A program made the translations under genes and the position numbers. From IMG/VR virus record IMGVR_UViG_3300006916_000211, positions 1 through 30,920 of that record: a stretch of DNA of 30,920 bases; one strand, written 5' to 3'. Shown one piece after another: positions 3,380-26,300 of the stretch. Numbering within the stretch: the first letter of the stretch is position 1; the number at the start of each line of letters is the position of its first letter. Source of the DNA: a virus. The notes below the pieces were generated by a model that ran no database searches, had not been told where the DNA came from, and saw nothing but the letters and a program-made list of their open reading frames with translations.

Positions 3380-3383
3380 TTTT

Positions 3384-3411
3384 AAGGGGGCATTTAGCCC
3401 TCTTTTTTTTT
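3384..3411 (+). terminator. Rho-independent terminator
   Basis: A 7-bp stem (AGGGGGC at 3385-3391 with GCCCTCT at 3397-3403, one G-T pair) has a five-base loop ATTTA and is followed by a run of nine T (3403-3411). It lies right after the TAA at 3377-3379. Confidence 0.9.
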
Positions 3412-3480
3412 AAAATATCTATCAGATAGAGTTTACTATCATCATGCATATACAAGCAATTACAAATCAAAACAAATCAT
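3412..3480 (+). promoter_or_regulatory. Probable promoter/operator region of the second small-gene operon
   Basis: The 69 bases between the terminator and ATG 3481 hold a perfect inverted repeat TCTATC-A-GATAGA (3418-3430), whose right arm pairs again with CTATC at 3436-3440, giving three alternating arms. An A-rich leader CAAAACAAAT (3468-3477) precedes the ATG. Because a terminator lies just upstream, a promoter is needed here, but I cannot point to a convincing -7/-33 Bacteroidota promoter. The repeat may be an operator. Confidence 0.4.
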
Positions 3481-5305: not shown

Positions 5306-5341
5306 ACAAAAGAGGGGAGTTAATAGCTCCCCTTTTTTTTA
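5306..5341. terminator. Bidirectional terminator between convergent operons
   Basis: A hairpin with a 12-bp stem: 5308-5319 (AAAAGAGGGGAG) pairs with 5327-5338 (CTCCCCTTTTTT), one G-T pair, loop of seven bases (TTAATAG). T runs follow it on the + strand (5333-5340), and T-rich sequence (CTTTTGTTTT) follows it on the - strand. The T tract on the right reaches the TAA stop of the 1,953-aa gene, so it serves both operons with no spare sequence. Confidence 0.9.
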
Positions 5342-8300: not shown

Positions 8301-11200
8301 AATTCATTACCTGTTAAACCTTTTCCAATAGCAGAATACAATTCTTTTTTAGATGTTTCAATTGCTTGTTGTAAATCACGCAATAAAATCTGTTGACTAG
8401 GAGTAAGTTTATAACCATTATACTGACCAGACTCATCTCTAGTCATTCTAATTATTTCATAAACTCTCTCATAGATTTCACTTAAATCGACTATCTTATC
8501 ATTTTTTTCTTTTATAGGAGCAAGTATTTCTTCTCTTCTTTCTAATAAGTATTTTCTTTCTTCATAATACTCATCAGAAATAGAAACTGTAGTATTTCTA
8601 TCTATCCATTGATTTAGTAATTCTTGTTGAACCTCTAAACTTCTAGGTATTTGATTACCATCGGCATCAATTTCATATTTAGAATCTTCAACAGCTTCAT
8701 TATACTTAGCTTGAAATAAAGCAGCATCTACTGTTGATTCATAAAACTCTTTTCTTCTATCGAAGTACTCTTTAAGTCTTTCAGCTATTAATAAATCATT
8801 CCCAGTTTTATAATCTAAGTTCTCATCAAGTAAACTTCTTAATCTAATTAATTCAGCAAACTTATCTGCACGAACTCTATCAATTTCTGGATTACTAATA
8901 GCATCAATAGGATCACCTAAGTAATTTAATTCCTTATAGATATCATCCATAAGCATTCTAGCTTGAGTACCTATATCATCTTGATACAATAAAGCTTCTA
9001 CATCATAAAAAGAATCTACATTTTTCTGAACAAAATTGTTTTTAAGTTCAAAAAATAACTCATTTTGAGCTTCATATAAAGCAGTCTTAGTTGTTGTAGT
9101 TTGCAAATTTACATATTTAATACTAGCTTCTTTTATTTTTTCTTTTAAGAATTTTAAACGACCTTCAAAATCTTTAAATGCTGATTTAAATTGCCATTCT
9201 AAATTTTCTTCTAACTCTAATTTATTATTTAATTGGCCAACATCAACCAACTCACCTAGTTCTCTTCCTAATTTTGGAGAATTTAAATGCCTTCTATTTC
9301 CCCAACCAGCAGCTTTCAATAAATCATTTAATTTATTATCAGCTAATAATTCTGCTTGACGAGCATTAGATTTTAAATTAACTTCATCTAAATATTTTTT
9401 TAAAAAAGAACTAAAAGAACCAACAATAGTATCTTGATTATACAAATAAGATTCAAGGCTGTTATTTAACATTTTTAAAATACCAGCTCTAGCTTCAGGT
9501 GCAAAAAATAATTCTTTGAACTCTTCTCTAGTAATTGAAAATCCTTTTATTTTTTTATTAAGTAATTCTAATCTTCTATTTCTTTCAGTAGTATTAAGAC
9601 TAGATCTAGCTTCTAAAGCGTTAAACTCAGAAAGTTCTTCTGGAGTTAATCCATAATACTCTGTATGAGCTCTTATATACTCTTGATCAGTTCCTGATTC
9701 TTTTAAAACGCGTAATTCATTTTCATAAAAAGATTGACCTTTATCAGATGTTTCTTGAATATGATCATACAAAACATCAATAGTAGATGAAATTTTCTTT
9801 TCATTAACAGCAGCATACAACTGATCAACTTTAAATTTAATTTCAGAAAGTTTTGTTGTAAGCTCTGATGTTATAAGACTAGGATATTCTGTTTTATTTA
9901 TACCAGCTTTTTCTAAATAATATAAATATTGTTCTAAGATTTCAGAAATAGTAAATAATTGTTTTATATCAGATAAACTATCTAAATTATTATTTCTTAA
10001 TTCTACAAACCTATCATTTAAAATATCTGCTATTTTTTCAATTTTTAAAACCTGACTAATAAATGTATTCAACCTATTAGCAATTTGCTCATTAGTTAAT
10101 ATTTGAGACTCTGTTAATTCAGAAACAAGTTTGCTTTTAGATAAACTTTCAGGTATTGTTTTACCAGCCATTTGTCTTAAAATCAAATTCATGTTATCTA
10201 TTAAACCATTTGCATCATCGTTAGTTAAATCTGCGTATATAGGAGAAATAGCGTTTTGATTTTTTAAATATACGCTTTGGTTTTCAATTGTTTCAGCAAG
10301 ATCATTTATTAAAGCTTGAAACTCTTCCTTAACTTGTTGATTAATAGCATCCATCTGAACATCATACTCTTTCATTAAGTATACAACGTCATCGACACTT
10401 AAAAAATCTGTATCTAGATTAATAGTATCCATATTAATCATAGTTACAAAATCTTTTAATTTAGTTTTACCAGACAGATTGCTAAGATCAATTGATTTAC
10501 CAAAAAATTTTCTTAATATCTTTTTAATATTATAAAATATATTACCTATTACAGTTCTATTCTTAATCTCTTCAGCATTAGCTTCTGTAAGGGCCTGAAC
10601 AACTATTTCTTCTTTAAACTCTTGTGAGTCTTTTTCATAATTATTTTCATAGTCTCTAACAACTCTATCATAAATAACCTGCCCTTTATTTGTATTTATT
10701 AAATCATTATACAGTTTATCAAATAACTCAGCATTATCTTTTGCTAATACTTTAACAACAGGATGAGCAAACTCATGAAAAACATTATCAGAACTATATA
10801 AACCGTCAGCAAAGTATACAGTTCCTTTAGAATAAAAAGCATTTATTTTAGATCCAGGTTTATTTTCATAAAAAATCACTGGAACATTCAATCTAGTAGA
10901 AAAATCTTCAATTGCTTTTTGTGAATTCTCAGAATTTGTTCTAGCAAATATTTGTTCAAAGCTAGAACGAATATCTTTTTCTGATAATTCTAAATCTGAA
11001 GTATCATCATAAACCTTAGATTCAATATTTAAATCTGCGGGTTTTGTAAATTCATTTTCTAAATCTTGAATAACTGCTCTTGGAGATCTTACTAAACCGT
11101 TATGTCTAACAACATCCGCCATTGCTGCATTCTCACCAACTATTTCAGAAAGTATATCAAACTTTCTTTTATCCTCTTCATTTGTAAAACATACAGCCAT
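5339..11200 (-). CDS. Giant polyvalent virion protein: N-terminal zincin, helical middle, C-terminal membrane-associated region (1953 aa)
   Basis: Residues 105-205 form a zincin-type metallopeptidase domain: strands VPVIFY and AFYSKGTVYFADG, then VFHEFAHPVV with H142, E143 and H146, and a possible third ligand at E197/E198 (FKEEIVVQAL). This strand-strand-HExxH order is typical of zincin domains in large polyvalent phage and plasmid proteins. About 250-1250 is charged and mostly helical, with long coiled-coil stretches. The C-terminal third contains FMLNPVAGIRNYASG (about 1443), a motif seen in large polyvalent-protein-associated regions, and hydrophobic segments near 1635-1655 and 1718-1757 ending in SDDDDEE. 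This fits a cargo protein that is ejected and meets the host envelope. The start ATG is one base after the upstream stop. The C-terminus (EGGKE) lacks the Cys ending of the other giants. Fold of the zincin is likely; role in ejection is inference. Confidence 0.8.
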   Translation of the reverse strand: MAVCFTNEEDKRKFDILSEIVGENAAMADVVRHNGLVRSPRAVIQDLENEFTKPADLNIESKVYDDTSDLELSEKDIRSSFEQIFARTNSENSQKAIEDFSTRLNVPVIFYENKPGSKINAFYSKGTVYFADGLYSSDNVFHEFAHPVVKVLAKDNAELFDKLYNDLINTNKGQVIYDRVVRDYENNYEKDSQEFKEEIVVQALTEANAEEIKNRTVIGNIFYNIKKILRKFFGKSIDLSNLSGKTKLKDFVTMINMDTINLDTDFLSVDDVVYLMKEYDVQMDAINQQVKEEFQALINDLAETIENQSVYLKNQNAISPIYADLTNDDANGLIDNMNLILRQMAGKTIPESLSKSKLVSELTESQILTNEQIANRLNTFISQVLKIEKIADILNDRFVELRNNNLDSLSDIKQLFTISEILEQYLYYLEKAGINKTEYPSLITSELTTKLSEIKFKVDQLYAAVNEKKISSTIDVLYDHIQETSDKGQSFYENELRVLKESGTDQEYIRAHTEYYGLTPEELSEFNALEARSSLNTTERNRRLELLNKKIKGFSITREEFKELFFAPEARAGILKMLNNSLESYLYNQDTIVGSFSSFLKKYLDEVNLKSNARQAELLADNKLNDLLKAAGWGNRRHLNSPKLGRELGELVDVGQLNNKLELEENLEWQFKSAFKDFEGRLKFLKEKIKEASIKYVNLQTTTTKTALYEAQNELFFELKNNFVQKNVDSFYDVEALLYQDDIGTQARMLMDDIYKELNYLGDPIDAISNPEIDRVRADKFAELIRLRSLLDENLDYKTGNDLLIAERLKEYFDRRKEFYESTVDAALFQAKYNEAVEDSKYEIDADGNQIPRSLEVQQELLNQWIDRNTTVSISDEYYEERKYLLERREEILAPIKEKNDKIVDLSEIYERVYEIIRMTRDESGQYNGYKLTPSQQILLRDLQQAIETSKKELYSAIGKGLTGNELEEFFELWNSYSEGYVLESYEQDLLDSYLDTMREGLSIFKISEEDQKELIDIEKRLSEMSQSVFTIHYLNTFQEFYDSDSGFKEVMDEFLIKISDDDFNLDDNYIVQEKHIKELFKGYNKSFLNELRGINSDFDTFIENNHIEIERQEEQPDGKNITVTILRNTSVWQFSQPLDEDAYNTFSLQDEFGNDIELLRDRNNTLRIPGFNFQNREVKEDFKTKEIEKDFVDANGNLVVANKTNKGQWLPKESSEYRNESYYDMFNNNRPMWDLLNYVKDWHLDNQKNKPNNKKLYISYPKLRKNGAEDYFTKGYWRRRVYRMGDMFTTRADDFDEGVRFDKRSGETFTSKTINEVDRPVIGVWEGLPLNELSTDIFETMQRYQHSLQEFEVANELFPYANTVQRTLTEFNSDGTLKNAKLKSSFVSLASKNKEDRNTAQNVSDIVDRYIRGIQLKGGQKGSVWGKWVDKASKWTSRKFFMLNPVAGIRNYASGQIQAFYLLWDFKNYVTPVDFVVGAAKANKTLLHYQSRGYSAREKTAQMQLMDILNASPDKYLQMQADAGNRSMLNDLVSFRIGYYLRTTLTHSFNYQASYAFMNNKKFKFKLNGKSTTLDDAVEVVDGKVQTKEGVPEDFKISYDESGNVVLGKKIKELIKTQEDYLLKTVGMGGKNHEGDFISRTIIGRVLFSMMKFIVPMSMYRYGAKIRYDKSAPTYQKIKLQRRRNWLTGGAERGYFIDAVKIGLDIAESGYSGFKKRNIGYRQYVALAQLVSAVLMTELIRYTIGSLLTMTFTGLLSDDDDEEFTIDELGGRSGIEFKKWSDNVKLPDLPWVDDDVASKGFDLKEYTKLHLINLLIEVERENETFFAPDLLHTVSGYMTGSSPFFGGIPAELTRAFKFAADNSYLTEEEEIEEMLEGNRLYRVHENRDKSLIGKKAGPYWWQNKGAWKIYNIIGRSYGFNGMVLDPAAKIQSNLQYLPRDWKWAKTIEGGKE

Positions 11201-11201
11201 A

Positions 11202-11831
11202 TTAACACTTTTTGTTACGTTCTTTAATAATATTTTCTACACTGTTATAATCAACACGTGCATTATTGGTTTGAGCACTCTCATCAAAATAAAAATCTAA
11301 AGTTAGTTGTTCAGCTTCAGATTTAATTTCTCTTTCAGTTTCAGCAAATTCATTAATAAAAAATGAAAATGATCTTTCTTCTTGTTCCCGCAAAGCTACA
11401 TTAGAAGCACTATTCATTTCTGCCATTAACTCTTTAGTAAAAGCAACACTATTCATTTCTGCTAAAGTCTCAGCAATGTCTAGATCATAAATAATAGATT
11501 CTCTAGCAGCCATAATTGAACGAGGAACAGATAAAATTACAACAGCTTTATTCCAGTAATCATATTCAACTCTAGCCCATCCATCTTTATAGTTTTCACC
11601 ATATGTTTCTTCAGCCCAATCCTCAACCTTATCTCTTAACTTATTTGCTAAACTAACAACTTGAGGTTTAGTAAGACCTTCTCTTTCGTATATATTAATA
11701 GTATCATTTACAATTTTATATACAGGCTTTTTATCAGTAACCTTAGCTGCAACTTCTTCTAATGTAAGATTCAAAAGTCTTTGCATTTCTTTTAAATCAT
11801 TTACCCTTTGATCTTCTATTGAACACGCCAT
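11202..11831 (-). CDS. Hypothetical protein between two giants (209 aa)
   Basis: A small acidic, mostly helical protein placed between the 3,837- and 1,953-aa genes with spacings of two bases and one base. It starts MACSIEDQRVNDLKEMQRLL and ends IIKERNKKC. A beta-rich centre (WARVEYDYWNKAVVILSVPR) is flanked by helices, and the phrase AEMNS occurs twice within about 15 residues (LAEMNSVAF and MAEMNSASN), encoded by a 16-base direct repeat. No enzyme motif is visible. Coupled translation with the giants suggests a stoichiometric partner, such as a chaperone or a minor virion protein. It shares the terminal Cys features of the neighbours. Confidence 0.8.
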   Translation of the reverse strand: MACSIEDQRVNDLKEMQRLLNLTLEEVAAKVTDKKPVYKIVNDTINIYEREGLTKPQVVSLANKLRDKVEDWAEETYGENYKDGWARVEYDYWNKAVVILSVPRSIMAARESIIYDLDIAETLAEMNSVAFTKELMAEMNSASNVALREQEERSFSFFINEFAETEREIKSEAEQLTLDFYFDESAQTNNARVDYNSVENIIKERNKKC

Positions 11832-11833
11832 TA

Positions 11834-14800
11834 TTAACAGTTTTTATTTTGAGCATTCTTTATATCTTCTACTGTATAGTTTGCCATTCTAACAAAAGTA
11901 TACTCTATAGCATATGGATATTGACCTACTAACCTATCAGTAACATCTTTAGTCCATCCTTCTTTTTGCCAAGTAGCATCTTGATACTCTTGTGTAAATT
12001 TAGCAACATTTGTGATTTTAACAACCGCTTTTCCTGGAAACTTTCCAGTACTATCGAACATTAATACCTCTTGACCTACTAAATCTGATACCTTATCTAC
12101 ATTAGCAGCTTTCATATAACGAGCTATTTCTGTTTTGCTGCGGGTACTTCTAGTTCTTGAACCATCAACAACCATTTCCATAGTAGACTTGCCTTTAAAT
12201 TGTGGCATCATAGTTCTTGCTTTCCAAGTATTTCCATCTTTATAAGTTGAACCATCAGCAAAATTTTGTTCTATTACTAATGAAGGTATACCTGTTTCTA
12301 TTTCATTTAAATTTCTAAATGGAGAGATAAAACCATTTATAGTAATATTATTAGTTCTCTTTAATAGATTATTGTTGTCTACAGTAAAGATCACATTATT
12401 TACAGAAAGAGATGGATTAACAACATAGTTATATATTTTACCATTAGTTGTGTTTTTTAATCTAATAGAAACATGTTCAGGATTTGTTTTATTTCTAGAA
12501 ATATTTAAAACTTCCGTTTGAGATTTAACTACTTCATCATTTATAACAAATTCAACAAATAAAACATCACCTTTTTTAACTGGTTGTGCATCTCTACTTC
12601 TTTCTCTATTTACTCTTTGCTGACTATCAGCTTGACGTTTGCTTATTACTTGCGCTCTTATTTCCATTAAAAATCTTTCTAGGTAAACGCTTTGCAATCC
12701 AGAACCTTCTACAATAGGAGAATTAGATGACGCTATCAAAACTTCTTGAAACTTATTTCTAAATCCAGGAGCTTGATCATTTGTAAAGTTTATAAAAGAC
12801 ATAAAATTAGCTTTAGCCATAGCATAACCAATCCCATCATTTAATTCATTTTGATTTAACTTATTTAGTTTATTGTTTAAATCTTCAGAGTAAAATGATT
12901 TTCCAAGAACCTTGCTTACAGAAACAGATGGTTCATTAAACTTATGTAAGTCTACTGCTTGTTCTTTATATGTATCATTTACAACTTCATAATATTTACC
13001 AAGATCAGTATATCTAGCCATTGGATAAAAACCTTTTTCTTTTAAATAATCTAATGCTAATTGATCTACACCAGAAGCATCACCAATAAAGAATGTAGTT
13101 ACTCCAGCTTTTAATGCTTGATCTATATATTTTTTATGATAATCGTTAAATGTTTTTTCAACATTAGCTTCCCACTGTTCTTTCTTCATTACACCCTTAT
13201 AGGCATTTTCAAAAATACCTGATCCAAATATCCAAACTTTATCGGAAGATTTAAATTTAATCCTGTTACCTGCTAATTTAGTTGGATACTTTTTATTAAT
13301 AGAGTTTACATAGGCCTTAGACGAAGATTGATATTTAGGTGCTGCACCTTCAGTTGCTCTACCTATAGCTACAGTAGAACTATTTGCCATTGCCTCATCC
13401 TTAACTGAATATTTTTTTAATATTTCAGAATCAGATATAGAAATATTATTACTTGTTTGTCCTTTAGATACAATTAATGCTTTAGCATACTTTCCGCTAT
13501 TGTCAATATTTAAATAATTATTGAGGGCTATATCCAACTCTTGTTGAGAACCATTTTCTGGTGCAATAAATTTACTATTACTTAAGATAGCTATTTTTTC
13601 ATCTTGAATACTTTCTAGGTATTCAGTATTAATACTACCATCATCATTAAATATATCATCTACATTTAATTTTACAAAACCAGCAGGTATGTTTTTAAAT
13701 GAAGAATATACTCCTACATTCTGATAAGACAATGCTGTGTTTATAACACCATCTTCTACATTCTCTACAGTATCGGAAATGTAGTTTACACCCTTACCTC
13801 TAGTTCTATACGCATTCTCATCTTTAGATACTCGATCAAAAAGTTCAGCAAATACATTTAGATATGGTACATCTAATTCTGATAATTTTTGACCTTGATT
13901 TAATAGTTTAGAATACTTATCTAATAACTCAGTAATTTTATTAACGTCATATGCACTATCAATAGATGTAGAAAAAACAGACTCATCTATAATTCTAGTT
14001 AAATTATATTTACCTTTAGTTAATCCAGATTGCATTAAAGCATAATTAGTAAATTGACTAAAGAAATCAGATACTTCTGGAATAGGACTATTAATTAATT
14101 CAATTAAATTTTCTTTATAAGCTCTTATTATACTTCCATCATCATCAGTTAATTTATCTAAAAATAAATTAGCATTTTTTTCAAATAAATCATATCTCAA
14201 ATCCTGAAACAACTGATTATGTAAAAGACTTTCTCTATGTTTAACTTGAATATTTTTAAAGATTGTAGCAAATCCTAAAGTATAATTAAACATTGCTACG
14301 TTATTTCCAGAATAAAACAAAGCCATCTTTTTAATAGTTCCTTTTTTAGTAAAAGATCTATCACCGATGTTGTTAAAATAATAAAACTTGTCTTTAAATT
14401 CTTCATCAGACATTTCTTCAACATCAGCTTCTATTCTTTGTCTTTCTATTTCATATCTAATATAATGGCCATTAGTAGGAAAAACATCTAATATACCAGT
14501 TAAACCTAAATTATATAACTCATCATCAATTGCTTTTTCAATTAAATTAGAATTTACAGACACATTAAAACCATCAATTGATATAGCTTGTTCTTGTTCT
14601 AAATTTTCTGAAATTCTAAAATCTTTATAAGAATTATTTCTATAAATTGAATTTTGAAACAAAAACCAAATAAAGTCGTTCTTAAAGTTATTATAATGGT
14701 ACGCTTTATCAACTCCTTTTGGTCTAAAAGAACTAATTGATTTTTTAATTACAACTGAATTATTACGAACTCCAAAATACTTACTCAATAAATCTAATAT

Positions 14801-17800
14801 AAATTGATCATTTGCAAATTTACCAACAGGTGTATCTTTAATTTCTTCAAACCAGTCATTTGCATAACTTTTTTCTTTACTTTGTATTTCAATTGTTTGA
14901 TCAATTCTTTCCTGAGCTTGAGATAAATTTTGAAGCTTTTCAGTATCAAATTTATTTACCATAGTAAATTCAGTAATGTCGTTAGACATATCCTCTATAG
15001 CAATATAGTGAGCAAGTAATTGAATATCTCTAGTATTATACTTTCCTTTTTCTTTAGTTAAAGCAGCATCTTTGAGCTCTTTAGATGTAAAGTTCTTGTC
15101 GATAGTTTTATTTACAGTATTAAAAGTAAAAATACCAGAAGGAAATAAATCTTGATATTTATCTGTCATTCTTGCTCTTGCTTCTTTAGTAGCTTGACCT
15201 TGACTTAAAATAACTGGTTTCTTAGCATCAGTAGTTAAGTTTGCAAAAACACCTGACAACTCTGCTTTCATTTTATTATACTCAATAACAAGTGGATGTG
15301 AAGATAAGAAAACAGCATCGTTTACTTTAGCTCCAGCCATTATCATAAATAATAATTGAGGAGTATTTTGTAAGTTACCTTGTACATTATAAATCCATGC
15401 TTTTTTAGCAACATCCACATATCCATTTATTAATTGACCTATAATATTTGAAATTGTAATACCATCTTTATTATTCAAATTAGATAAACTTACGTAACCA
15501 TCTAATTTTTGAGAATCAATTTTTAAAGAATAATCTTTATATGCTTTTATAATAATAGAAGCTTTAGTTAATTGAGCATTTTCTAATGGAGATAAATTTT
15601 GTTTAGCACCTAACTCTTTGGCTTTTTCTAAAGCTTTAGTAAATTCTATTTGTTCTGCTTGAGATACACCATTTAACTTAGCACCCATTTGAGTAAAAAT
15701 AGCATAGAATGTAGATGTTACAGCAGCTATACCTAATGAACGTAAACCAACAGAATTTTCTTGATGTTTTTGCAAATTATATCTATAATCATATATAGTT
15801 GTACCTGCAATACCATCACCAACTTTACCTTTACCTCTATTGTATTTATTATAAAAAGAAGTTTCGTTTAATTTTTTTTCTAATTCATTAGCAATATCAT
15901 CAAATAAATCTGTAGAGTTAGGTACAAGTAACTGATCTGCAGTATTTGCAAAGCTAACTCTTTCAGCAAATAATAACATTAATTCGTTTTGCAAACCTTT
16001 AATAGATTTTTGATTTAGCTTTCGTAAAGCTGCATTTTTTTGCTTGGTTAATTTATTTCTCTTATCCTCTAAAGATTTTATTTTTTTATTTTCTTCAGCA
16101 AATAATTTAGTTCTATCTGTCTCACCAATTGTCTCTAAAGCAATTTCATCAATACGATCATTTATTTCTTTATTAATAGAGTTTCTTTCTTCAGATAGTT
16201 CATTTATTTTATTAGTAGATTTAATATGATATTCTTTTTGCTGAACGCGAGTATATTTTTTATACTTACCTATATTATTGTATACTTTAGATGCTTCATC
16301 TATTTCAGCATCTATTTGACTATTTAATTCATTTCTTTGTTCTACTAAATCTAAAAGTTCATTACTTACAAAATCTTCAATTTCTTGAAAGTTTTCAAAG
16401 ATTGTTGTTTTGTTAGCATATAACTGATTGATATTAGTATTTAAAGTTTTTAATTCTTCATTAATTTTTTCTAACTGATTATTTAATTTTTCATCAGAAT
16501 CAGTTATTGATTTATCATAAGTAATTATTTCTACTCCTTCACCACGATAATAAGCAATGTTTGGGAACATCATAAAAAGCTTATCGATATCATAATCAGA
16601 ACCAGCTTTGGCTACAATTTCAGAAGGTAGAATAATTTTATTACCCTCTATCGGAGGCAAAAATTCTTTAACCACCATAGACTCAATAGAGTTTTCTGCT
16701 TGAGTTGGAATACGTGGACCTACTAATCTTAATTTATCTTTGTGTTCTTCAAAAAACTTTTCATCCTTTAAAGCTTCATTTAATCTAGCAAGTGATGCAT
16801 TAAAATCAAATTCTTTTTTTGTTTTACCAGTTTTTTCATCAACTACCTTATTATATTGAGCTATCTGACTTCCTTTATAATCAAGGTATAGTAAATTCAT
16901 AAAGTCGCCCTGTAGCGCGATTTTTACTTGAGCTTCAGCAACTCTAAAAAATCCTTTTTTATTTTTAGCAGGTTTTCCATTTTCATCAAGAACATGATAA
17001 AAAGAAAGACCGTTTGTACCATATTTAAATACATCTTCTTTACTTGCTAACTCAGGTTTAAATTTAGATTCTGCCATTGTACCTGGCATTTGAACTAATC
17101 CTTCACCAGCAAACTTAAGGTTTCTTAATTCATTATCTACTAAAGTCATCAAGACCTCTTCAATTTTAGATGAATTTAAAGAAAAAGATAAATCAGAAAT
17201 TAATTCACCAGAACCATCTGGTTTTAAAATACTTGCTACTTCTTCAGGTAATAAATTTTTATTAGTTAATTCTTGTTTAATATATTTTGCTAATTCTACA
17301 GTAGAACCAATATATTCTTTAGAACCATCTTTATTTACTTTTTCTTTTAATCCAATATTTTCCAGTAAATTATTTCTAGAAAAAGTTCTAATCTCATCTA
17401 AGACTGCATTATATCTTTTAATCCAAGAATAACTTTTAGATTTTTCTCTTTTTTCTGATTCGGATAATTTTTTCCAAGCTGTTTTAGTTCCTGAATAATC
17501 TGCAGGCTTACCATCACTATACAAACCAAGTGTAGAAATTTTACGCATCTGACTTGGTAAAGATATATATCCTTTAAATCCTTCAGACAAGTATACTTGA
17601 CTTTTTAAATGTTTTACATGAATTAAATTTTCAGTAATAGGATTGTTAGTTATTACCCTACCGTTTTTAACATCATAAATATTATCTAAAACAGGTTCTG
17701 TATTTAAATTTTGATTAGTAATAGTACTTATAGTACCTAGTTTAGAAGCGGAGCTCATAGCAATATAATCCCAATTCTCCTCCATCATTCTATTATGTAA

Positions 17801-20800
17801 ATCTTCTAATGGTGTATTTGCAATAGCTGTACTAGGAATTAAAGGAATGACAGAGTATTTGTGAAACGCATAAGGAGTTAATCCAATTTCTTTAAGTGCG
17901 TTATTAAATAAAGGACCGTAATACTGAAACTTTTTAATTGGAAAAGTATTTTTTATTTTACGTTGATCTATATTTTCTCCTTTCAACAAAGCCTGGTAAA
18001 CAGCTTCTTGGCCAGTAGACCATTCACCAATCGAATCAAGTAAAAATCTATATGTATCAAATTTTATCCAAGCAGCACCATCTGCTTCTTCTTGTTTATT
18101 ATAAGCCTTAATATCAAAGCCAAAAAGTTCTTTGTATGTATCAGCATACACAGACTCAGAAATTGCTTCAGCGATAATTCCTGTACGTAAATAACCTTGA
18201 TAAACTCTAGGTTGAAAAGTTTCAGGTAAATTTTTATTTTGTTTTTCTTCTACACTTAAAGATTCGTAATGTTTTTTAGCAAATGCATCTTTATTATATT
18301 TTTCAGAATTAAGATGATTAAACCAGGAATCTTCATTTAAGAAAATATCTCCAGCTGATATTTTACCAGCAATACGTTTATGATAATCTTCACCTTTTAT
18401 ATTGTAAGAAGAAGGATCACCTAAAAATAAAGATTGATATTCTAAATTGTTGTAAAAATTATTTAAAATAAATAAATGAAATAATCTATCCTTAGTAACT
18501 TTTATATCTTCGTCTACTGATAACTGATACTCAGAAACTAAATTATCAGATAAGATAGCTTTTTCTCCAAACTCCTTTAATAAATCCTCAGTTCTAAATT
18601 TAAAATAATCTAATAACTCAGTTTCTAAAACTTTCTTTTCTTCAATAGTTAATATATTATCTAGTTGAAAAGGTTTTAAAATTAATTCACCTTCTGCATT
18701 TTTTAATTTTTCTAATTTGCTTTTAGTTTCGTCAGTTAATATATTTTCAAATTTAATAAATGTAGATCCTCTGGATAAGAACTTTTGATCAAATGCAACA
18801 GATTCTAATTCTCCTGTTTCTATTTTATCTTTTAATTGTTTAATTCTATTAATACGAACCAATTCAGATTCTATATGCGATTTAAATAATTCGTATATAA
18901 TTAAACCTTGAGGCCCTTTTAGATCTTTATAATTCTCACTTAGTAATGTAAATACTTCCTCATTACTAAAAGCAGTTTTTTGCAATCTACCTTTTTTAAT
19001 TGTAGGCATTTGTACAATTACAGATGTTGACTTTGCCTCACTACGCATTATCTCTTGGTAGTTCTCTATAGTCGTATAAAGGTCTGTTGTAAACTTTGAA
19101 AACTCGTCTGTAGAAATACTTTTAACACCTTTATCTAAAGCACCTTCTTTAATTACAGATCCTACTAAATTTTCAGTATTAATAGACATGTTAAAATTTC
19201 TTTCACCGTAACTTGGATTATTTTCATCTAAGTCTAGATTAAACATTTTAACAAATGTATTATTAGCTGCAACTTCAGGATTTATTTCAATATCAAATTG
19301 CTGCATACCAGGAATAGTAATCAAACTAAAATAGTCTTCTGCAGAATTAATTAAAGATATCTCTACACTTAAAGAGCTATGTTTAGGTTTAGTAGATTGG
19401 TTTTCTCCTTCTGGAGTTTTTTGCATAAAAGTAGAATAGTCATCACTTCTAACTCCTGCAAGATTAGCTAATTGATTTAAATAACCAGATAAATTATTTT
19501 GTTTTTGATTCTGATTATTTTTTACATAAGTAAATGCTTTAAATAAATCTGATAATGTTTCAGGAAATTTAAATTGATCGTATGCTGTAACTCTGTTATT
19601 TATAGACTTCCAAAAAGAATCTATAAATTCAGCATCAATAAAATTAGATCCTTTTCTAATTTCTTCATTTACTTCGACAGTGTTTGGTAATATAATACCA
19701 AATATCTCTAGTAGTTTTACAGGTTCAGCTTTATACCTAACCATTGATTTTGTATTTGGTTGAGGTGTTTCAAAAACTCTTCCTGCATAATCTACATAAA
19801 CAGTTTCAGAAAAATCTTCAATAATAGCATCAAAATAAATCTCATCTTTAGACAAATACCCAGACAACTCTTCCGATGGATTATCTAAGTTATATTGATA
19901 CTCAAAAGACCAATCTCTTTTAATAATAGAAGTTTTAAATTGAACAGATGTTAGTTTAGATGTAATTGATTTTACTTGAGGGACTTCACCCATTTCTAAT
20001 TCAATTTCATCAAGTTTTTCTATTTCTCTTTCTAATTCAAAAGTTCTTAACCTTCTTGTAGCTTTAGCAAATGATTTCCAAAAGTTTCTCCACTGTTCAA
20101 TTTCTGCTTTAGTAATACCTTCTTTTTCAGGATTACCTAAACGAGTAAGTAAAACTTTAATAGATTGATTTTTATCTTCAATTGCTTTTAAGGAATCATA
20201 CATCTCTTTCATTGTAACATCCTTATAAGTAGCATTAGCTATTTGGAAAATAATAGAATTTAAATTAGTCAAAGAAGGAACTTCAAAAGAATTGGTAATT
20301 AGTTTACCATCGCTTCTATATTTTGGTAAAGTAGTTATAAGTTCTTTAGTTCTAGCATCAACTAGCTCCGACATTGGTTGTTCTGCACCTGTTCTATCAA
20401 ATAATAAATTTAAATTTTCAGATGTTTGATTTTGTAGATCTTCTTGGAATCCAGCTTCTTCTAACTGTATTGTAGAATAATTATTTAAAAATACTCCTAA
20501 TACAGTTTCTGAATCGTTTAAAAATTCTTTTACTGGCTGACTAACATCACCAAAATTTTTAATTATTTTTTCCAGAGACTCAATTAATTTTTCATTAACA
20601 GAAGAAGGATTTTCTTTTAAAGACTCTAATTTATTTTCAAACTTTGAAAGTATATAGTCAAAAGCTTTTTCTAAAAGTTCTGGATTATTTTCTAAAACAA
20701 ATAAACCATTAGAGTGAGGTGTTTCTCCTTTCTTTAATTCATTTAATTGATCAACGTATTCTTTACTTAATTTTTTATAATCTTTGTCGTTGTAAGGTAT

Positions 20801-23347
20801 CCTAGCCATTTCATTTAAAAGCTCGGCCATCTTTGTAGCTGTTGCTACATTTGATGTTGGATTAACAACTCTATCAATAAAACTATATAATAAAGAATTC
20901 ATTGACTCTACAGCCAAAGAGATTTCATTGTAACTTAATTCATTTTCTATTTCAAAACTAGAAAAATATTCTATGTTTGGTTTTACATTTTCAAATTTTG
21001 AAAAATCTACATTACCTTCATAAATATTATTAAAAATTGCATTTATTTTAGGAGATAAAGAATTTAATAATACAACCTCAGAATATGTATGATTACCAAA
21101 TAAACTTCTAAGCCTTTCTAAAAGCATTTCAAAGAACTGAGCAATTTTAGATTTTGGTTTGTTGTTATACTTAGATCTATTTCTAGCATAAGCTCTAAAT
21201 TCTTCAGCCAACCACTCCTCTAAAGTTAATTGGTCTTGGTTGTTATTTACATCAATAGAGTCAAACGAAAAGTTTTTCTTTACACCATTAACAATAACCT
21301 CTGCCGACTTACCTTTATTTTCATCAAGTATTTCCTGATATAATAGCTTACGCTCTTGTGTAGAAAGTATACCTCTAACATGAGCATGAAAAACTTCATG
21401 GTAAATTGCTGTTCTATCAGAGCCTTTCCATAGACCAATAGTATTACCAACAAATGATGCTACAAAAGACTTACCTTTTTCATGTATATCGCTGTAAGCT
21501 GCTACCTTAAGAATTGATCCCCAACCAGATTCTTCTAACCACTCATCAGCTCTTACTTCTTCTTCAGTAGTTGCTTGTGGAACATTTTTACCATTTCTTT
21601 TATTAGCTTCTTCAATAGTCATGTAATACTCTTCAAACTCAGTAGTATCTTCTTGAGTTCTATTTTCAGGAGTATAAAATGCTAAATAAGGAGAGTATGC
21701 TCTTATTTCATTTTTAGAATTTGGAATTATTGTTGTTTCTGTAGTTTCTTTTATTCTTTCAATTAATGGAACTTCTTTAGTTATAACAACATCATTATTT
21801 ATACTTGATACAACTTCAACAACAGCACTATTTATATCTGAAACACCTAAATAAACTTTAGTCCCAACACTTGGTTTTTTAGCTATAAATTTATTTCCAT
21901 CTTTATCTACAACAATCTGTTGATTATACGTAACTTTATCAATAGAGTCAACGGTAACATTTCCAACAGGCACGGAAGCTCTATATATAAATGGATAATA
22001 AGTAGAAATAAATTTTTGAAATCCAGCTTTAATATCTTCTGGATTATCTATTTCATATTTTTTACTTCCAAATTGAACTTCACTAACTTTACCTTTAGAA
22101 TAAGAAACTTTAAATATTGGATTAAAAGATGCATTAGCATTAAGATCAATGTACTGCTGAATTAATTTATTTCTTTTATCTTTAGTTAATTCTTGACCTT
22201 GTTGATCTTTTAAATTATTATTTGTTAATAGCTCTAATAAAAAATCTATTTGTTCTTTTGGCAAACTTTCTAGCGGTGCTGAGTACAATGGATAAGATTC
22301 ATTACTAAAAGGAACTCTTACCATTGGAACAATACTACTACCTTTAGGTTGTAATTCAATAGATAATTTATTTTGATTACTTAAAGTAGAAACTTTTGTA
22401 CGAACTGAATTATTTCTTTCAATAAAACCATAACTACTAGCAGCTAGATCTATTTCAAAAAGAACTTCCGAACCTTTTTTAACTTCGTTAATGGCAGCAT
22501 TTAAAGAATTAAAATATTCATTTTGCTCAGTAAGTATTTTTTTAGAAGCCTCTTTACTAGTTAAATTATTTATAGCCTGCTCATAAGCAATTAATGTTTT
22601 TAAAGTTTCTTTTTGCGCATTCTTATTTGTTACAAGATCTAATATTGCTAACTTACCTTTACTAGAGTTTGTAACATTACCAGCATCATCAAAATAAACA
22701 TCATTACCTTTGTTATCTACAATCTTTAAAGAAGCATCTCCTTCTTCTAAAATAAGTTTTAATTTAAAATTATTTTGATTTGATGTAGCCATGATAGCTC
22801 TACTAACTGCATTAGCTAATTCAAACTCAGGATTTGTTGCTTTTTCTGAATATGAATTTGTCTCTTTATTAAAAATAATTTCGTTAGGGTGAGATGTGTT
22901 AAATACAAGTTTTCTTGCACTATAACTATCGTATTTACGATCAGGTTTATTAATAACAAAATCAACATCAACTTCAATTATATTTTTAAAGTCATCAATT
23001 ATATTTTGAAAATTATTTAAATTATTTTCTTGAGATGCTTTATAAATATTTTTAGCATTTTCATTTATTGTTGATTCTAGCTCAGTATTATCTATTCCAA
23101 TATTATCTGCTAAATATGATTTAAGTATTTGAGGTACTACAGTTAAATGTTGTAAAATAATCTCATCATTACTTATACCCTCAGCACTAACAGGTTCTGT
23201 TAAAGCATCAAAATCTTTTAAAGTTTCTTTATATAAAAAATTTATTATTTCTTCGTAAGTAGAATTATTAGTAACAACACTAGGAAGTTTAGATTTAAAA
23301 TAAGTTCCTAAAAGTTTTATTGATTTATCTGTAATACAATTTCTCAT
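11834..23347 (-). CDS. Giant virion single-chain RNA polymerase with zincin and SLOG-like domains (3837 aa)
   Basis: Two double-psi beta-barrel signatures mark a one-polypeptide RNAP related to cellular beta/beta' and to crAss-like phage virion RNAPs. Beta'-like: RIPTQAENSIE (from R2212) to SDYDIDKLFMMFP, with D2251, D2253 and D2255 as the Mg2+-binding triad; the 39-residue spacing from R-x-PT mirrors beta' (R-A-PT to NADFDGD). Beta-like: YIAMSSASKLGTIS with K1869, followed by a LPSQMRKI segment. A coiled coil lies at about 2285-2440, then GLQNELMLLF and VGLRSLGIAAVTSTF. N-terminal: an HExxH zincin (H650, E651, H654; possible ligand E715/E716). Near 3370-3460: VWIFGSG and FFIGDASGVDQLALDYLKEKG, a SLOG-like nucleotide-binding domain. 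It is much longer than the roughly 2,200-residue RNAP of phage phi14:2. Expected role: packaged, injected, transcribes early genes. RNAP identity is strong; the other activities are inferred from motifs. Confidence 0.85.
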   Translation of the reverse strand: MRNCITDKSIKLLGTYFKSKLPSVVTNNSTYEEIINFLYKETLKDFDALTEPVSAEGISNDEIILQHLTVVPQILKSYLADNIGIDNTELESTINENAKNIYKASQENNLNNFQNIIDDFKNIIEVDVDFVINKPDRKYDSYSARKLVFNTSHPNEIIFNKETNSYSEKATNPEFELANAVSRAIMATSNQNNFKLKLILEEGDASLKIVDNKGNDVYFDDAGNVTNSSKGKLAILDLVTNKNAQKETLKTLIAYEQAINNLTSKEASKKILTEQNEYFNSLNAAINEVKKGSEVLFEIDLAASSYGFIERNNSVRTKVSTLSNQNKLSIELQPKGSSIVPMVRVPFSNESYPLYSAPLESLPKEQIDFLLELLTNNNLKDQQGQELTKDKRNKLIQQYIDLNANASFNPIFKVSYSKGKVSEVQFGSKKYEIDNPEDIKAGFQKFISTYYPFIYRASVPVGNVTVDSIDKVTYNQQIVVDKDGNKFIAKKPSVGTKVYLGVSDINSAVVEVVSSINNDVVITKEVPLIERIKETTETTIIPNSKNEIRAYSPYLAFYTPENRTQEDTTEFEEYYMTIEEANKRNGKNVPQATTEEEVRADEWLEESGWGSILKVAAYSDIHEKGKSFVASFVGNTIGLWKGSDRTAIYHEVFHAHVRGILSTQERKLLYQEILDENKGKSAEVIVNGVKKNFSFDSIDVNNNQDQLTLEEWLAEEFRAYARNRSKYNNKPKSKIAQFFEMLLERLRSLFGNHTYSEVVLLNSLSPKINAIFNNIYEGNVDFSKFENVKPNIEYFSSFEIENELSYNEISLAVESMNSLLYSFIDRVVNPTSNVATATKMAELLNEMARIPYNDKDYKKLSKEYVDQLNELKKGETPHSNGLFVLENNPELLEKAFDYILSKFENKLESLKENPSSVNEKLIESLEKIIKNFGDVSQPVKEFLNDSETVLGVFLNNYSTIQLEEAGFQEDLQNQTSENLNLLFDRTGAEQPMSELVDARTKELITTLPKYRSDGKLITNSFEVPSLTNLNSIIFQIANATYKDVTMKEMYDSLKAIEDKNQSIKVLLTRLGNPEKEGITKAEIEQWRNFWKSFAKATRRLRTFELEREIEKLDEIELEMGEVPQVKSITSKLTSVQFKTSIIKRDWSFEYQYNLDNPSEELSGYLSKDEIYFDAIIEDFSETVYVDYAGRVFETPQPNTKSMVRYKAEPVKLLEIFGIILPNTVEVNEEIRKGSNFIDAEFIDSFWKSINNRVTAYDQFKFPETLSDLFKAFTYVKNNQNQKQNNLSGYLNQLANLAGVRSDDYSTFMQKTPEGENQSTKPKHSSLSVEISLINSAEDYFSLITIPGMQQFDIEINPEVAANNTFVKMFNLDLDENNPSYGERNFNMSINTENLVGSVIKEGALDKGVKSISTDEFSKFTTDLYTTIENYQEIMRSEAKSTSVIVQMPTIKKGRLQKTAFSNEEVFTLLSENYKDLKGPQGLIIYELFKSHIESELVRINRIKQLKDKIETGELESVAFDQKFLSRGSTFIKFENILTDETKSKLEKLKNAEGELILKPFQLDNILTIEEKKVLETELLDYFKFRTEDLLKEFGEKAILSDNLVSEYQLSVDEDIKVTKDRLFHLFILNNFYNNLEYQSLFLGDPSSYNIKGEDYHKRIAGKISAGDIFLNEDSWFNHLNSEKYNKDAFAKKHYESLSVEEKQNKNLPETFQPRVYQGYLRTGIIAEAISESVYADTYKELFGFDIKAYNKQEEADGAAWIKFDTYRFLLDSIGEWSTGQEAVYQALLKGENIDQRKIKNTFPIKKFQYYGPLFNNALKEIGLTPYAFHKYSVIPLIPSTAIANTPLEDLHNRMMEENWDYIAMSSASKLGTISTITNQNLNTEPVLDNIYDVKNGRVITNNPITENLIHVKHLKSQVYLSEGFKGYISLPSQMRKISTLGLYSDGKPADYSGTKTAWKKLSESEKREKSKSYSWIKRYNAVLDEIRTFSRNNLLENIGLKEKVNKDGSKEYIGSTVELAKYIKQELTNKNLLPEEVASILKPDGSGELISDLSFSLNSSKIEEVLMTLVDNELRNLKFAGEGLVQMPGTMAESKFKPELASKEDVFKYGTNGLSFYHVLDENGKPAKNKKGFFRVAEAQVKIALQGDFMNLLYLDYKGSQIAQYNKVVDEKTGKTKKEFDFNASLARLNEALKDEKFFEEHKDKLRLVGPRIPTQAENSIESMVVKEFLPPIEGNKIILPSEIVAKAGSDYDIDKLFMMFPNIAYYRGEGVEIITYDKSITDSDEKLNNQLEKINEELKTLNTNINQLYANKTTIFENFQEIEDFVSNELLDLVEQRNELNSQIDAEIDEASKVYNNIGKYKKYTRVQQKEYHIKSTNKINELSEERNSINKEINDRIDEIALETIGETDRTKLFAEENKKIKSLEDKRNKLTKQKNAALRKLNQKSIKGLQNELMLLFAERVSFANTADQLLVPNSTDLFDDIANELEKKLNETSFYNKYNRGKGKVGDGIAGTTIYDYRYNLQKHQENSVGLRSLGIAAVTSTFYAIFTQMGAKLNGVSQAEQIEFTKALEKAKELGAKQNLSPLENAQLTKASIIIKAYKDYSLKIDSQKLDGYVSLSNLNNKDGITISNIIGQLINGYVDVAKKAWIYNVQGNLQNTPQLLFMIMAGAKVNDAVFLSSHPLVIEYNKMKAELSGVFANLTTDAKKPVILSQGQATKEARARMTDKYQDLFPSGIFTFNTVNKTIDKNFTSKELKDAALTKEKGKYNTRDIQLLAHYIAIEDMSNDITEFTMVNKFDTEKLQNLSQAQERIDQTIEIQSKEKSYANDWFEEIKDTPVGKFANDQFILDLLSKYFGVRNNSVVIKKSISSFRPKGVDKAYHYNNFKNDFIWFLFQNSIYRNNSYKDFRISENLEQEQAISIDGFNVSVNSNLIEKAIDDELYNLGLTGILDVFPTNGHYIRYEIERQRIEADVEEMSDEEFKDKFYYFNNIGDRSFTKKGTIKKMALFYSGNNVAMFNYTLGFATIFKNIQVKHRESLLHNQLFQDLRYDLFEKNANLFLDKLTDDDGSIIRAYKENLIELINSPIPEVSDFFSQFTNYALMQSGLTKGKYNLTRIIDESVFSTSIDSAYDVNKITELLDKYSKLLNQGQKLSELDVPYLNVFAELFDRVSKDENAYRTRGKGVNYISDTVENVEDGVINTALSYQNVGVYSSFKNIPAGFVKLNVDDIFNDDGSINTEYLESIQDEKIAILSNSKFIAPENGSQQELDIALNNYLNIDNSGKYAKALIVSKGQTSNNISISDSEILKKYSVKDEAMANSSTVAIGRATEGAAPKYQSSSKAYVNSINKKYPTKLAGNRIKFKSSDKVWIFGSGIFENAYKGVMKKEQWEANVEKTFNDYHKKYIDQALKAGVTTFFIGDASGVDQLALDYLKEKGFYPMARYTDLGKYYEVVNDTYKEQAVDLHKFNEPSVSVSKVLGKSFYSEDLNNKLNKLNQNELNDGIGYAMAKANFMSFINFTNDQAPGFRNKFQEVLIASSNSPIVEGSGLQSVYLERFLMEIRAQVISKRQADSQQRVNRERSRDAQPVKKGDVLFVEFVINDEVVKSQTEVLNISRNKTNPEHVSIRLKNTTNGKIYNYVVNPSLSVNNVIFTVDNNNLLKRTNNITINGFISPFRNLNEIETGIPSLVIEQNFADGSTYKDGNTWKARTMMPQFKGKSTMEMVVDGSRTRSTRSKTEIARYMKAANVDKVSDLVGQEVLMFDSTGKFPGKAVVKITNVAKFTQEYQDATWQKEGWTKDVTDRLVGQYPYAIEYTFVRMANYTVEDIKNAQNKNC
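12990..13245 (-). other. SLOG-like nucleotide-binding domain in the RNAP giant
   Basis: Residues about 3370-3455. A first strand with glycine loop (KVWIFGSGIF), a helical part, then TFFIGDASGVDQLALDYLKE with the G-(D/G)-A-x-G-x-D-x-LA pattern characteristic of YspA/DprA-related SLOG domains, which bind nucleotides or nucleotide-derived ligands. Confidence 0.6.
16030..16495 (-). other. Coiled-coil insertion directly after the RNAP catalytic motif
   Basis: Residues about 2285-2440 of the RNAP protein are a run of heptad-like charged helices (QLEKINEELKTLNTNINQLY, then QRNELNSQIDAEIDEASKVY and SKVYNNIGKYKKYTRV). It starts about 30 residues after D2255. Confidence 0.7.
16585..16716 (-). other. 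RNAP beta'-like double-psi barrel and Mg2+-binding loop
   Basis: These bases encode RNAP residues from R2212 (RIPT) to D2255 (DYDID). Cellular beta' enzymes have NADFDGD at this place; here the last variable residue is Ile instead of Gly. Confidence 0.85.
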
Positions 23348-26300
23348 TATTTACATTTATTAAATTCTTCTATAATTTGATTATTCAAATCAGTTTTTTC
23401 TAAGTTATCAAACTCAGAAATATTACTAGTAAAGTTACTAAAAATATCTGACAAACTTTCATTTAAAGAAGTCAAATCTTCTTTGTTCATAACAGTATCT
23501 ATAAGATTTGAATTTATTACTGTTTGATCTGCTTGAATTATTTTAAAATTATCAACTGATTCTGGAGCACCGTTACTAATAAATTCATCTACAGAGATAG
23601 TAGTTTTTGGTTTTTCTAATGCTTGTACATTAGTAAAAGCTAGTGTATTAAAATTACTTATTTCTATAGTATAAACGCCAGGTTGGATATTACCAATTGG
23701 CTGTAAAACTTGATACACACCAAAAGACATACTTGGATTATTTATAAAATCAATTAATTGTCTTTTTACTTCAGCGACCTGCCCTTTAGATAAAGTGCTT
23801 GAATATTGTTTTTCTAATACAGTGTTAATTATATCTAAGGGTTTATTAAAATCAATAACATCTGAATTTCGTAAAGCTTTAATAACTTCAGAAACTAAAG
23901 ATCTTGGATTAGAAAATGACTCAATACCATATTCTTGTAGATTTTTTGCTGCAATATTATATAAATTATTTTGAGCTTCTCGAGCTAAAATTGAATCAAA
24001 ATCTTCTTCAACAACTTCTTGTTCAACTTCTTGTTCATATAATCCTTCTGCTGCAGCTCTATCGTATAAATCTTTTTGAACATCTGTTAAAGATTCTCTA
24101 GTTCCTGTATATGCACCAACTTCAATTTTATATTCAATCGAGTTTTGATAGCTATCTAAAGTATTATAAAATTCATTTAAAGACTCATCTGTATATACTC
24201 CTTTACTAGCTTCTTCAAATTGTGTTTCTTCTAAAATTAAAGCCTCGCTCAAAGCTTCTTGACGAGCTTGTTCTTCAGGAGTAATACCACCCTCAGAAAT
24301 AATAATTGCTACTTCTGCATCTTTTATAAGTTGTGCTTTCATATTAGCAATAGAACCTAACTTTATAGCTTCTTCTAATGCATTTTTACCGGTAGTTATA
24401 TCATTATATAGTTCTGGAATTTCTTCATAAATATCATCAGCTAATTCATCAACTCTATTATAAATTTTTGTTTTATTTTTTGGCAATTTTGAATCTCTAT
24501 CAAAAATATAACCTTCTTGACCAGATTCTCTTCTAACACCAACATCACGAGTTCTATCGTTCCAAAGACCATACTCACCACTTGGCCCTAATGCATCGAT
24601 AGCTAAAGCTAAAGCCATTAAATCTGGAGTTGTGGATGCACTAGTTAAAGCAAAATCTCTAGCTTTTTGAAAAGTAACATCTACAACATCTGTTTGTTTT
24701 GGTTTAGAAACAGGAGTCTTTTTTGCTACAGGAACAAGTCTAGGAGAATTAAAAAAATCGTATTCTACTTTAAAAGGAAAGTTTTTAGAACGTAAAAAAT
24801 TATTAGTTTTAATTATAGCATTTCTGCTAAGTCTACGATCTTTATACTGATTATTCATTTCTGTCCTAACCGCATCATATAATTCATCTCTACTTGTTCT
24901 AGCAAATGTATTGGTTGGGTTATATTGCTTAGATAAACTATAGAAATTAAAAAGATCATTTAACATTTGTTCTTTTAATTTACGACGACTACTAAAAGTA
25001 TTATCTGTAGCAATAAAGTCTTCTATAATATTTCTGGGAATAGTTGTTACATCACTTGGTTTACTAGCAGCTTTTCTATTAAAACCAACCTTACTATTAG
25101 GAAATTTTCTATTTTTTCTAAGTTCTTCTGTGTTAGCATTTACTTTATCAACAAGCTCTTGTGCCTGTTCTTTAGTAAGGCCATTTTCTGCATTTTCATT
25201 TTCTAATTTTTTTTGTTTTACTCGATCTTCTAAATTAGCTAAATAATCAGCTCTCTCTTCAGCTGAATTTATATTATTGTATTCTTTTTTAAATTCTTGA
25301 GTTTCTTCTCTAGTAAATATATCTGTTAACCCTGGAATTAATTTTTCAAAAGAAGTAATGTTTAGTTGTTTAAATTTCTTTTCTTCAACTTCATCAGCTG
25401 CTTCATCAACAGAAACTGTTGCACTAAAACCTATTACACCATTGCTGCTAATTGGACTTACATAAACAATAGTTACTTTTGCTTGATTTGGATTATTACT
25501 ATTTAATACTTCTTTAGCTTCTTTAGATTCGTAAGGTAAGGCACCAATAACTTCCCCATCTTTATTTAATACATCTACAGAATACTCATATCCTTCAGCA
25601 ATGTTTTCTTCACCATATCTTACATTAACAGATAGTACGTCACCAACCTTTACTTTAGTTCTTGGTTTTTTTAAATTTTGTTTTGTACCACCTGTAATTG
25701 TTACTCCTGTTTTATCTTCTAATTTAATAATTGGAGACAATACAGGTAAATCAATACTAACAATATTACCGTTAATAGCTTCAGGTCCAGCTGTTGGTTT
25801 TTTCCAATATATATTATCTTCAGTCAATCCAAATTTTTCAAGATATGGTAATAGTGCTTTTTTTACCTTATCGAATTCTTCTTGATTCTTAACTCTTATA
25901 TTTAAAAACTTCCCTTTCTTAACAGGAACGCCTAAATCATTTACTAATGCATCGCCATTTATTGCAACTCTATTAGTTATTAAGTTTCCGCTTTTATCAT
26001 ACTCTAATTTATATATTCCGAGATCTATTTGATTTACCCAAAGCCTTAAACCATCTGTAGATATACTAGTCTTTTCAGTATATTTATGATCAGATGGTAA
26101 TCGTTCTTGTACAGAAGATATCATAGTCTTGAAATTCTCCTTTTTTTTCTTATCTATATCTTCATTTTTAGTTTCTTGATTTTCAAATTTTGAACTCCAT
26201 TTGTTAGTTGGTTTACCGTTTTCATATATTCTATAGTATCCTACAAAATTATTTTCTGAAAATCCACTTATAATAGTATCAATAAGTCCTGTTTTTTCAT

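What the first reader, a model, noticed from the sequence alone, without database searches (positions are those of the whole stretch)
16585..17745. Single-chain RNAP with DYDID catalytic loop inside a 3,837-residue protein
Both barrels of a multi-subunit-type RNAP can be read in one frame: K1869 in SSASKLG and the acid triad D2251/D2253/D2255 after a beta'-like R-x-PT strand. The loop is DYDID where cellular enzymes have DFDGD; Ile in place of the tight-turn Gly should change the geometry of the metal loop. The polypeptide is far larger than the characterised phi14:2 enzyme.
Basis: partly seen in the sequence, partly recalled or inferred. Interest (0 to 1): 0.8.

Follow-up and report, generated by a model that had tools for sequence, protein, structure and literature searches.

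The report
Phage polymerase in a cysteine-linked protein chain
The giant protein is the known type of RNA polymerase that crAss-like phages carry in their particles, with an ordinary active site for that family; but it has only two cysteines in 3,837 residues, one at each tip, and the same pattern in its neighbours and in dozens of related phages suggests that these phages join their injected proteins end to end through terminal cysteines.

Summary
K1869 and D2251/D2253/D2255 exist, are invariant in 39 relatives, and align with the solved phi14:2 virion RNA polymerase (6VR4, the only PDB match: profile E 1.6e-70, model match E 9.4e-26). The alleged oddities are family norms. Loop position 4 is Ile or Val in every sampled crAss-like phage (phi14:2 itself has DFDID). 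Complete homologues span 2,237-4,378 residues.

Following the protein outward showed something I found in no paper I could search. P0001 has exactly two cysteines, C4 and C3837. The neighbouring giant proteins fit the same scheme: first gene one C-terminal Cys (its N-terminus is cut off by the window), middle genes one at each end, last gene one N-terminal. In 41 genomes, 139/140 ends facing another chain member carry Cys within 10 residues, against 1/80 free ends; five genomes fetched later gave 18/18 and 0/10. Where neighbouring members are fused, the cysteines at that junction are missing; where the boundary moves, the pair moves too.

Best reading: the virion RNA polymerase is the middle link of a head-to-tail chain of ejected proteins, joined by terminal disulfides that stand in for peptide bonds. 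The pattern is shown; bond and purpose are inferred.

The parts
11834..23347 (-). P0001 (link B): 3,837-aa virion RNA polymerase polypeptide; only cysteines are C4 and C3837
17741..17743 (-). K1869, conserved lysine of the first barrel (aligned with K1065 of phi14:2 RNAP)
   Evidence: invariant in A1 and A3; BLASTP
16583..16597 (-). D2251-Y-D2253-I-D2255 metal-binding loop; preceded by R2212-I-P-T
15188..18580 (-). RNAP core, residues 1590-2720, folded with AlphaFold2; best and only significant PDB match 6VR4
15308..15829 (-). Conserved region after the loop (residues about 2507-2680, ..LINGYVDVAKKAWI..), aligned with phi14:2 RNAP; probably the bridge-helix/trigger region (inference)
21386..21400 (-). 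H650-E-V-F-H654 zincin-like motif in the N-terminal part of P0001; HExxH and a downstream LAEEF conserved
23336..23338 (-). Cys4 of P0001, N-end junction cysteine; one of six invariant columns in the first 500 residues of 10 relatives
11837..11839 (-). Cys3837 of P0001 (last residue), C-end junction cysteine
27330..30920 (-). P0005 (link A1, first member of the chain, 5' end cut off by the window): only Cys is C1195 (27336-27338), next to last
   Evidence: homologous to the first part of A in relatives
23347..27327 (-). P0003 (link A2): only Cys are C5 (27313-27315) and C1325 (23353-23355); N-terminal cap homologous to that of the C protein of two relatives
11202..11831 (-). P0004 (link X, 209 aa): only Cys are C3 (11823-11825) and C209 (11205-11207)
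5339..11200 (-). P0002 (link C, last member): only Cys is C4 (11189-11191); HEFAH zincin-like motif at residue 142

Best explanation
[quoted passage not shown] Shown: it is homologous to the solved phi14:2 enzyme; all chain proteins are almost free of internal cysteine; and each end that faces another chain member carries one cysteine, while the outer ends carry none. Inferred: the cysteine at the C-terminus of one protein forms a disulfide with the cysteine at the N-terminus of the next, in the virion after it leaves the reducing cell. The separate polypeptides then act as one thread of 5,400-9,300 residues. Pulled through the narrow tail N-terminus first, each protein drags the next, so zincin, polymerase and partner arrive in order and one to one. 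The reducing host cytoplasm then cuts the links and the polymerase transcribes early genes. In phages where two members are fused, the peptide bond does the same job and the cysteines at that junction are gone.
For: RNAP identity. Window: Cys at 1195 / 5 and 1325 / 4 and 3837 / 3 and 209 / 4, no others in 8,521 aa; about 112 expected at the 1.32% of other genes. Set of 41 genomes: junction ends 139/140, free ends 1/80. Five later-fetched genomes: 18/18 and 0/10. In 26 blocks, 116 Cys in 204,755 aa, 99 of them terminal; other genes of at least 300 aa in the same blocks: 7 of 195 with an N-terminal and 4 of 195 with a C-terminal Cys. Fusions: five Intestiviridae with B and C fused lack both inner cysteines, and homology proves the fusion (E 2e-26, 8e-17); ten A-B fusions lack them too. 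The A|B boundary lies before the zincin in window-like phages and after it in crAss001 and p-crAssphage, with the Cys pair at the boundary each time. The tree needs several changes of architecture. In crAss001, cr106_1, cr116_1 and cr85_1 A is on the opposite strand and still ends in Cys, and TGT:TGC use equals background: so selection acts on the protein, not on a junction DNA signal. Virion disulfides and partly unfolded cargo ejection are reported for crAss001 (PMC10172136).
Against: No disulfide between cargo proteins has been observed by me or in a paper I could read. Bacteroides and the gut are anaerobic, where oxidation is less sure, although the terminal cysteines are kept there. Gut phages tolerate more internal Cys (0-32 per chain). 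One A protein (G046) has its Cys 24th from the end. Some C1-like cargo proteins also end in Cys without an evident partner. Genomes share ancestry, so the counts are not independent, and the Fisher P of 5e-58 overstates the case.
Confidence: 0.62

Rival explanations
1. The terminal cysteines join or align the split parts of one polymerase complex during assembly or in the host cell (a docking bond), and have nothing to do with threading through the tail.
For: Same pairing logic and same fusion evidence; A and C are annotated as RNAP subunits in other records.
Against: A disulfide is unstable in a reducing cytoplasm, where the polymerase works; the chain includes members of very different kinds and a 209-aa link.
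Confidence: 0.15
2. The terminal cysteines bind a common partner (portal, C1 cargo, scaffold, or a metal site), not each other, as packaging tags.
For: Short exposed ends would suit a tag; the N-terminus is unstructured in a low-confidence model.
Against: A tag has no reason to be missing from the N-end of the first, the C-end of the last, and both sides of fused junctions.
Confidence: 0.11
3. Ordinary crAss-like virion RNAP; cysteine loss simply protects ejected proteins from the oxidising periplasm, and the terminal cysteines are chance or harmless remnants.
For: N4 ejection proteins have no cysteine at all, and this reason was proposed for the LUZ7 enzyme (PMC3715699).
Against: 139/140 against 1/80 ends, Cys kept through very divergent tails, 18/18 and 0/10 in later genomes; Cys4 is one of six invariant columns in 500.
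Confidence: 0.08
4. One reading: a structurally deviant polymerase in which Ile in the metal loop changes the active site, in an exceptionally large protein.
For: Cellular enzymes have Gly at this place (established knowledge); the loop itself is confirmed in the sequence.
Against: Ile/Val is the family norm, including the solved phi14:2 enzyme; the size is typical.
Confidence: 0.02
5. Each protein closes on itself by a disulfide between its own N- and C-terminal cysteine.
For: The middle members have one Cys at each end.
Against: First and last members have a single Cys and cannot; fused proteins lose the inner pair.
Confidence: 0.02

Closest known systems
phi14:2 virion RNA polymerase gp66 (PDB 6VR4) and crAss-like vRNAPs
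   Same: Two-barrel single-chain fold, conserved Lys, DFDID/DYDID loop, bridge/trigger region, block of giant virion proteins; the same terminal-cysteine scheme (gp65 C1797 only, gp66 C3 and C2179, gp67 C3 only)
   Different: Polypeptide 3,837 against 2,180 aa, with an N-terminal zincin part and a long helical insert after the loop; chain of five links against three
p-crAssphage gp44 / Intestiviridae RNAP fusions
   Same: Same enzyme core, size about 4,000 aa, zincin upstream
   Different: B and C are one polypeptide and the cysteines of that junction are absent
N4 (Schitoviridae) virion RNA polymerase and ejection proteins
   Same: Giant polymerase ejected with DNA; internal cysteines eliminated (0 in 3,500, 644 and 150 aa)
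   Different: Unrelated T7-type polymerase fold (established knowledge); no terminal cysteines, so no chain of this kind
P23-45 gp96 tape-measure-fused RNAP
   Same: Two-barrel virion RNAP joined to another giant protein (PMC10770324)
   Different: Joined by gene fusion; DFDGD loop; terminal cysteines not examined here

Membership tests
crAss-like virion RNA polymerase (phi14:2 type) | Sequence homology to phi14:2 RNAP over both barrels | tested here: met
crAss-like virion RNA polymerase (phi14:2 type) | DxDxD metal loop and conserved catalytic-type lysine in one polypeptide | tested here: met
crAss-like virion RNA polymerase (phi14:2 type) | Fold matches 6VR4 rather than cellular RNAP | tested here: met
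crAss-like virion RNA polymerase (phi14:2 type) | Lys and Asp triad facing each other across paired barrels | not testable with these tools
   no coordinates given; inferred from the alignment to 6VR4
crAss-like virion RNA polymerase (phi14:2 type) | Packaged in the virion and transcribes early genes | not testable with these tools
   needs virions and purified enzyme
Order Crassvirales | Giant transcription-block genes in the family order | tested here: met
Order Crassvirales | TerL, MCP and portal of the order | not testable with these tools
   none of these genes was recognised in the 30.9-kb fragment
Terminal-cysteine cargo chain (proposed here) | Cys within 10 aa at each end facing another member, none at outer ends | tested here: met
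   N-end of P0005 not seen (cut off)
Terminal-cysteine cargo chain (proposed here) | Disulfide between neighbouring ends | not testable with these tools
   needs virion biochemistry
N4-like cysteine-free ejection proteins | No cysteine at all | tested here: not met
   terminal cysteines present; N4 has none

The most novel reading that the evidence does not exclude
Crassviruses deliver their early-transcription proteins as a covalent train: separately translated giant proteins are joined C-terminus to N-terminus, in fixed order, by disulfides between single terminal cysteines that are interchangeable in evolution with peptide bonds, so that one thread is ejected and then falls apart in the host cytoplasm.
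Probability: 0.55. Interest if true: 0.9.

Novelty: new variant of a known kind. Interest (0 to 1): 0.74.

Why it matters
How a phage pushes megadaltons of folded protein through a tail channel less than 50 A wide, in the right order, is open. The papers on crassviruses describe giant polymerase proteins, variable gene boundaries and partial unfolding, but I found no mechanism for order or stoichiometry. Single cysteines at exactly the facing ends give a simple and testable one. They would also explain why gene boundaries in this block can wander, split and fuse freely between relatives: the thread stays continuous either way. If right, a non-reducing gel of an isolated phage (phi14:2 or crAss001) should show it at once, and the same signature can be looked for in other phages and injection systems.

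Tried and rejected
The unusual-loop idea was rejected: all sampled relatives have I/V. Unusual size was rejected. Pfam and PHROGs gave nothing useful for the five giant proteins, and a single-sequence PDB search missed 6VR4; only profiles and the model found it. The idea that the cysteines are by-products of a DNA signal at gene junctions (...TGTAAATAATG...) was rejected because A lies on the other strand in four phages and keeps its Cys, and codon use equals background. The genome-contig scan found no relative. phmmer of A against A-B fusions found nothing, and profiles were needed. For G033, G042, cr130_1 and cr7_1 the A-type N-terminus was not proved by profile; they were called fusions from size, from the zincin lying about 1,385-1,771 residues before the loop in the same frame (not measured for cr130_1), and, for G033, from its sister G043 (E 7e-26). 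The G038 exception is probably a mis-called start (55 bases of overlap). The zeta group, where polymerase genes are most broken up, could not be reached. The structure model of the first 500 residues is of low confidence.

Full report
1. What was claimed and what is there. The ORF at 11834-23347 (- strand) encodes 3,837 residues. The lysine in SSASKLG is K1869 (17741-17743), and the loop D2251-Y-D2253-I-D2255 lies at 16583-16597. The record is a 30.9-kb virus fragment. BLASTP against the phi14:2 polymerase aligns residues 1599-1880 (E 7e-14) and 2206-2263 (E 2e-11), putting K1869 over K1065 and the loop over DFDID at 1361-1365 of gp66. In an alignment of 39 relatives, K1869, the three aspartates and R-I-P before them are invariant. 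The profile of these relatives has a single PDB match, 6VR4, at E 1.6e-70. An AlphaFold2 model of residues 1590-2720 is good (pLDDT 84.9, pTM 0.79) and again has one significant PDB match, 6VR4, at E 9.4e-26; among predicted viral proteins it matches crAss-like proteins. So this is a virion RNA polymerase of the crAss-like kind.

2. What is not special about it. The loop has Ile or Val in fourth place in all sampled genomes: FDID 25, FDVD 12, YDID 3, and LDVD in cr111_1. The collection scan that found most IMG/VR relatives used a pattern containing this loop, so the unbiased part of the tally is the set of phage records found by tblastn, and it agrees. The size is also ordinary.

3. The unexpected feature. 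P0001 has two cysteines, C4 and C3837. P0003 has C5 and C1325 of 1,326; P0004 has C3 and C209 of 209; P0002, last in the row, only C4 of 1,953; P0005, first in the row and cut by the window end, only C1195 of 1,196. Other genes in relatives have 1.32% Cys, so about 112 would be expected in these 8,521 residues, and there are 8.

4. It is general. I took 50-kb blocks from 26 IMG/VR records, phi14:2, crAss001 and twelve gut crassviruses. Call the members A (before the polymerase), B (polymerase) and C (after it). phi14:2 shows it in pure form: gp65 (1,797 aa) has one Cys, its last residue; gp66 (2,180 aa) has C3 and C2179; gp67 (1,421 aa) has C3 only. Over 41 genomes, ends facing another member carry Cys within 10 residues in 139 of 140 cases and outer ends in 1 of 80. 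Among 58 complete polymerase ORFs, 49 have exactly two cysteines, both terminal; 75 of 75 complete C-ends have one. Other genes of at least 300 aa in the same blocks have an N-terminal Cys in 7 of 195 and a C-terminal one in 4 of 195. Five genomes fetched after the rule was formed gave 18/18 and 0/10.

5. A natural experiment. In five Intestiviridae, B and C are one protein; homology of its end to the C proteins of crAss001 and phi14:2 proves this (E 2e-26, 8e-17). There the C-end Cys of B and the N-end Cys of C are absent, while the A-B pair is present. In ten genomes A and B are one protein, and the A-B pair is absent while the B-C pair is present. A profile of the zincin part of A-B fusions matches the end of A in crAss001 (residues 2073-2257 of 2,341, E 4e-16) but the beginning of B in the window and its relatives: the boundary lies on different sides of one domain, and the pair sits at the boundary each time. 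The window shows two further boundaries not seen in its nearest relatives, A1|A2 and X (P0004), each with its pair. The cap of A2 resembles the cap of the C protein of two relatives (E 3e-6, 1e-8), which suggests how a new link can gain its cysteine. The tree needs at least three to four changes of architecture, so these are not one event. Some long branches make its deep joins unsure.

6. Protein level, not DNA level. In crAss001, cr106_1, cr116_1 and cr85_1 gene A is on the other strand from B and C, yet A still ends in Cys. Terminal cysteines use TGT and TGC as the background does. The tails around them vary while Cys stays within 0-9 residues of the end; at the N-end it is residue 3-6. Cys4 is one of six invariant columns in the first 500 residues of ten relatives that are 19-28% identical to the window. 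In a low-confidence model the first six residues are unstructured.

7. How it most likely works. Published work on crAss001 shows the polymerase-associated proteins in virions, several disulfides in the tail, a channel below 50 A and ejection N-terminus first with partial unfolding (PMC10172136). A chain in which C-end n is bonded to N-end n+1 fits that direction, gives order and equal numbers, and would come apart in a reducing cytoplasm. Internal cysteines would mispair in such a system, and they are nearly absent. In the 26 blocks, 99 of 116 cysteines are terminal. Bond formation, timing, threading and release are inference. The nearest precedent is the lack of cysteine in N4-like ejection proteins (PMC3715699; N4 checked here, zero in three proteins), which have no terminal cysteines. 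I could not read Drobysheva 2021 or Yutin 2018, so earlier notice of this pattern cannot be ruled out; searches of the open library found none.

8. Limits. Genomes are related, so counts are not independent trials. Several genomes reassign stop codons, and their internal counts are approximate, though their ends are not affected. A is cut in the window. Some C1-like cargo proteins end in Cys without a visible partner. Chemical linkage is untested.

Noticed in passing
window 2-454 (+): C-terminal half of a spore photoproduct lyase (Pfam SPL, E 1e-16), a DNA-repair enzyme, cut by the window end.
   Followed up: no
window 921-1343 (+): Small ORF with a HELMH zincin-like motif, a third such motif in the window besides P0001 and P0002.
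   Followed up: no
L003 5238-16828 (cr108_1): The polymerase frame stops inside the DxDxD loop (GSD*) and resumes downstream at YDID: an intron-like interruption at the active site.
   Followed up: partly
L177 15624 (crAss002): The annotated start of the polymerase gene is probably 32 codons too far upstream; an internal ATG gives MSCTPSN, matching the family's terminal cysteine.
   Followed up: partly
L095 25141-27714, L179 4528-6801, L177 4929-6602; G033 10476-14492: C1-like cargo proteins in some phages also end with a Cys (within 0-10 residues of the end) but have no evident N-terminal partner; unexplained.
   Followed up: no
C2-type cargo gene directly upstream of A in many blocks: Roughly 600-1,350-aa protein (MATYLQGV...) whose only cysteines are often C128 and C134, or none.
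   Followed up: no
P0001 residues about 3365-3440 and 3690-3825: By eye the C-terminal part looks like a DprA/SLOG-type and an ASCH-type domain; Pfam does not confirm either.
   Followed up: no
gut versus other records: Internal cysteines in the chain are 0-4 in phi14:2 and the IMG/VR records sampled but up to 32 in gut phages; perhaps relaxed constraint in anaerobic hosts.
   Followed up: no
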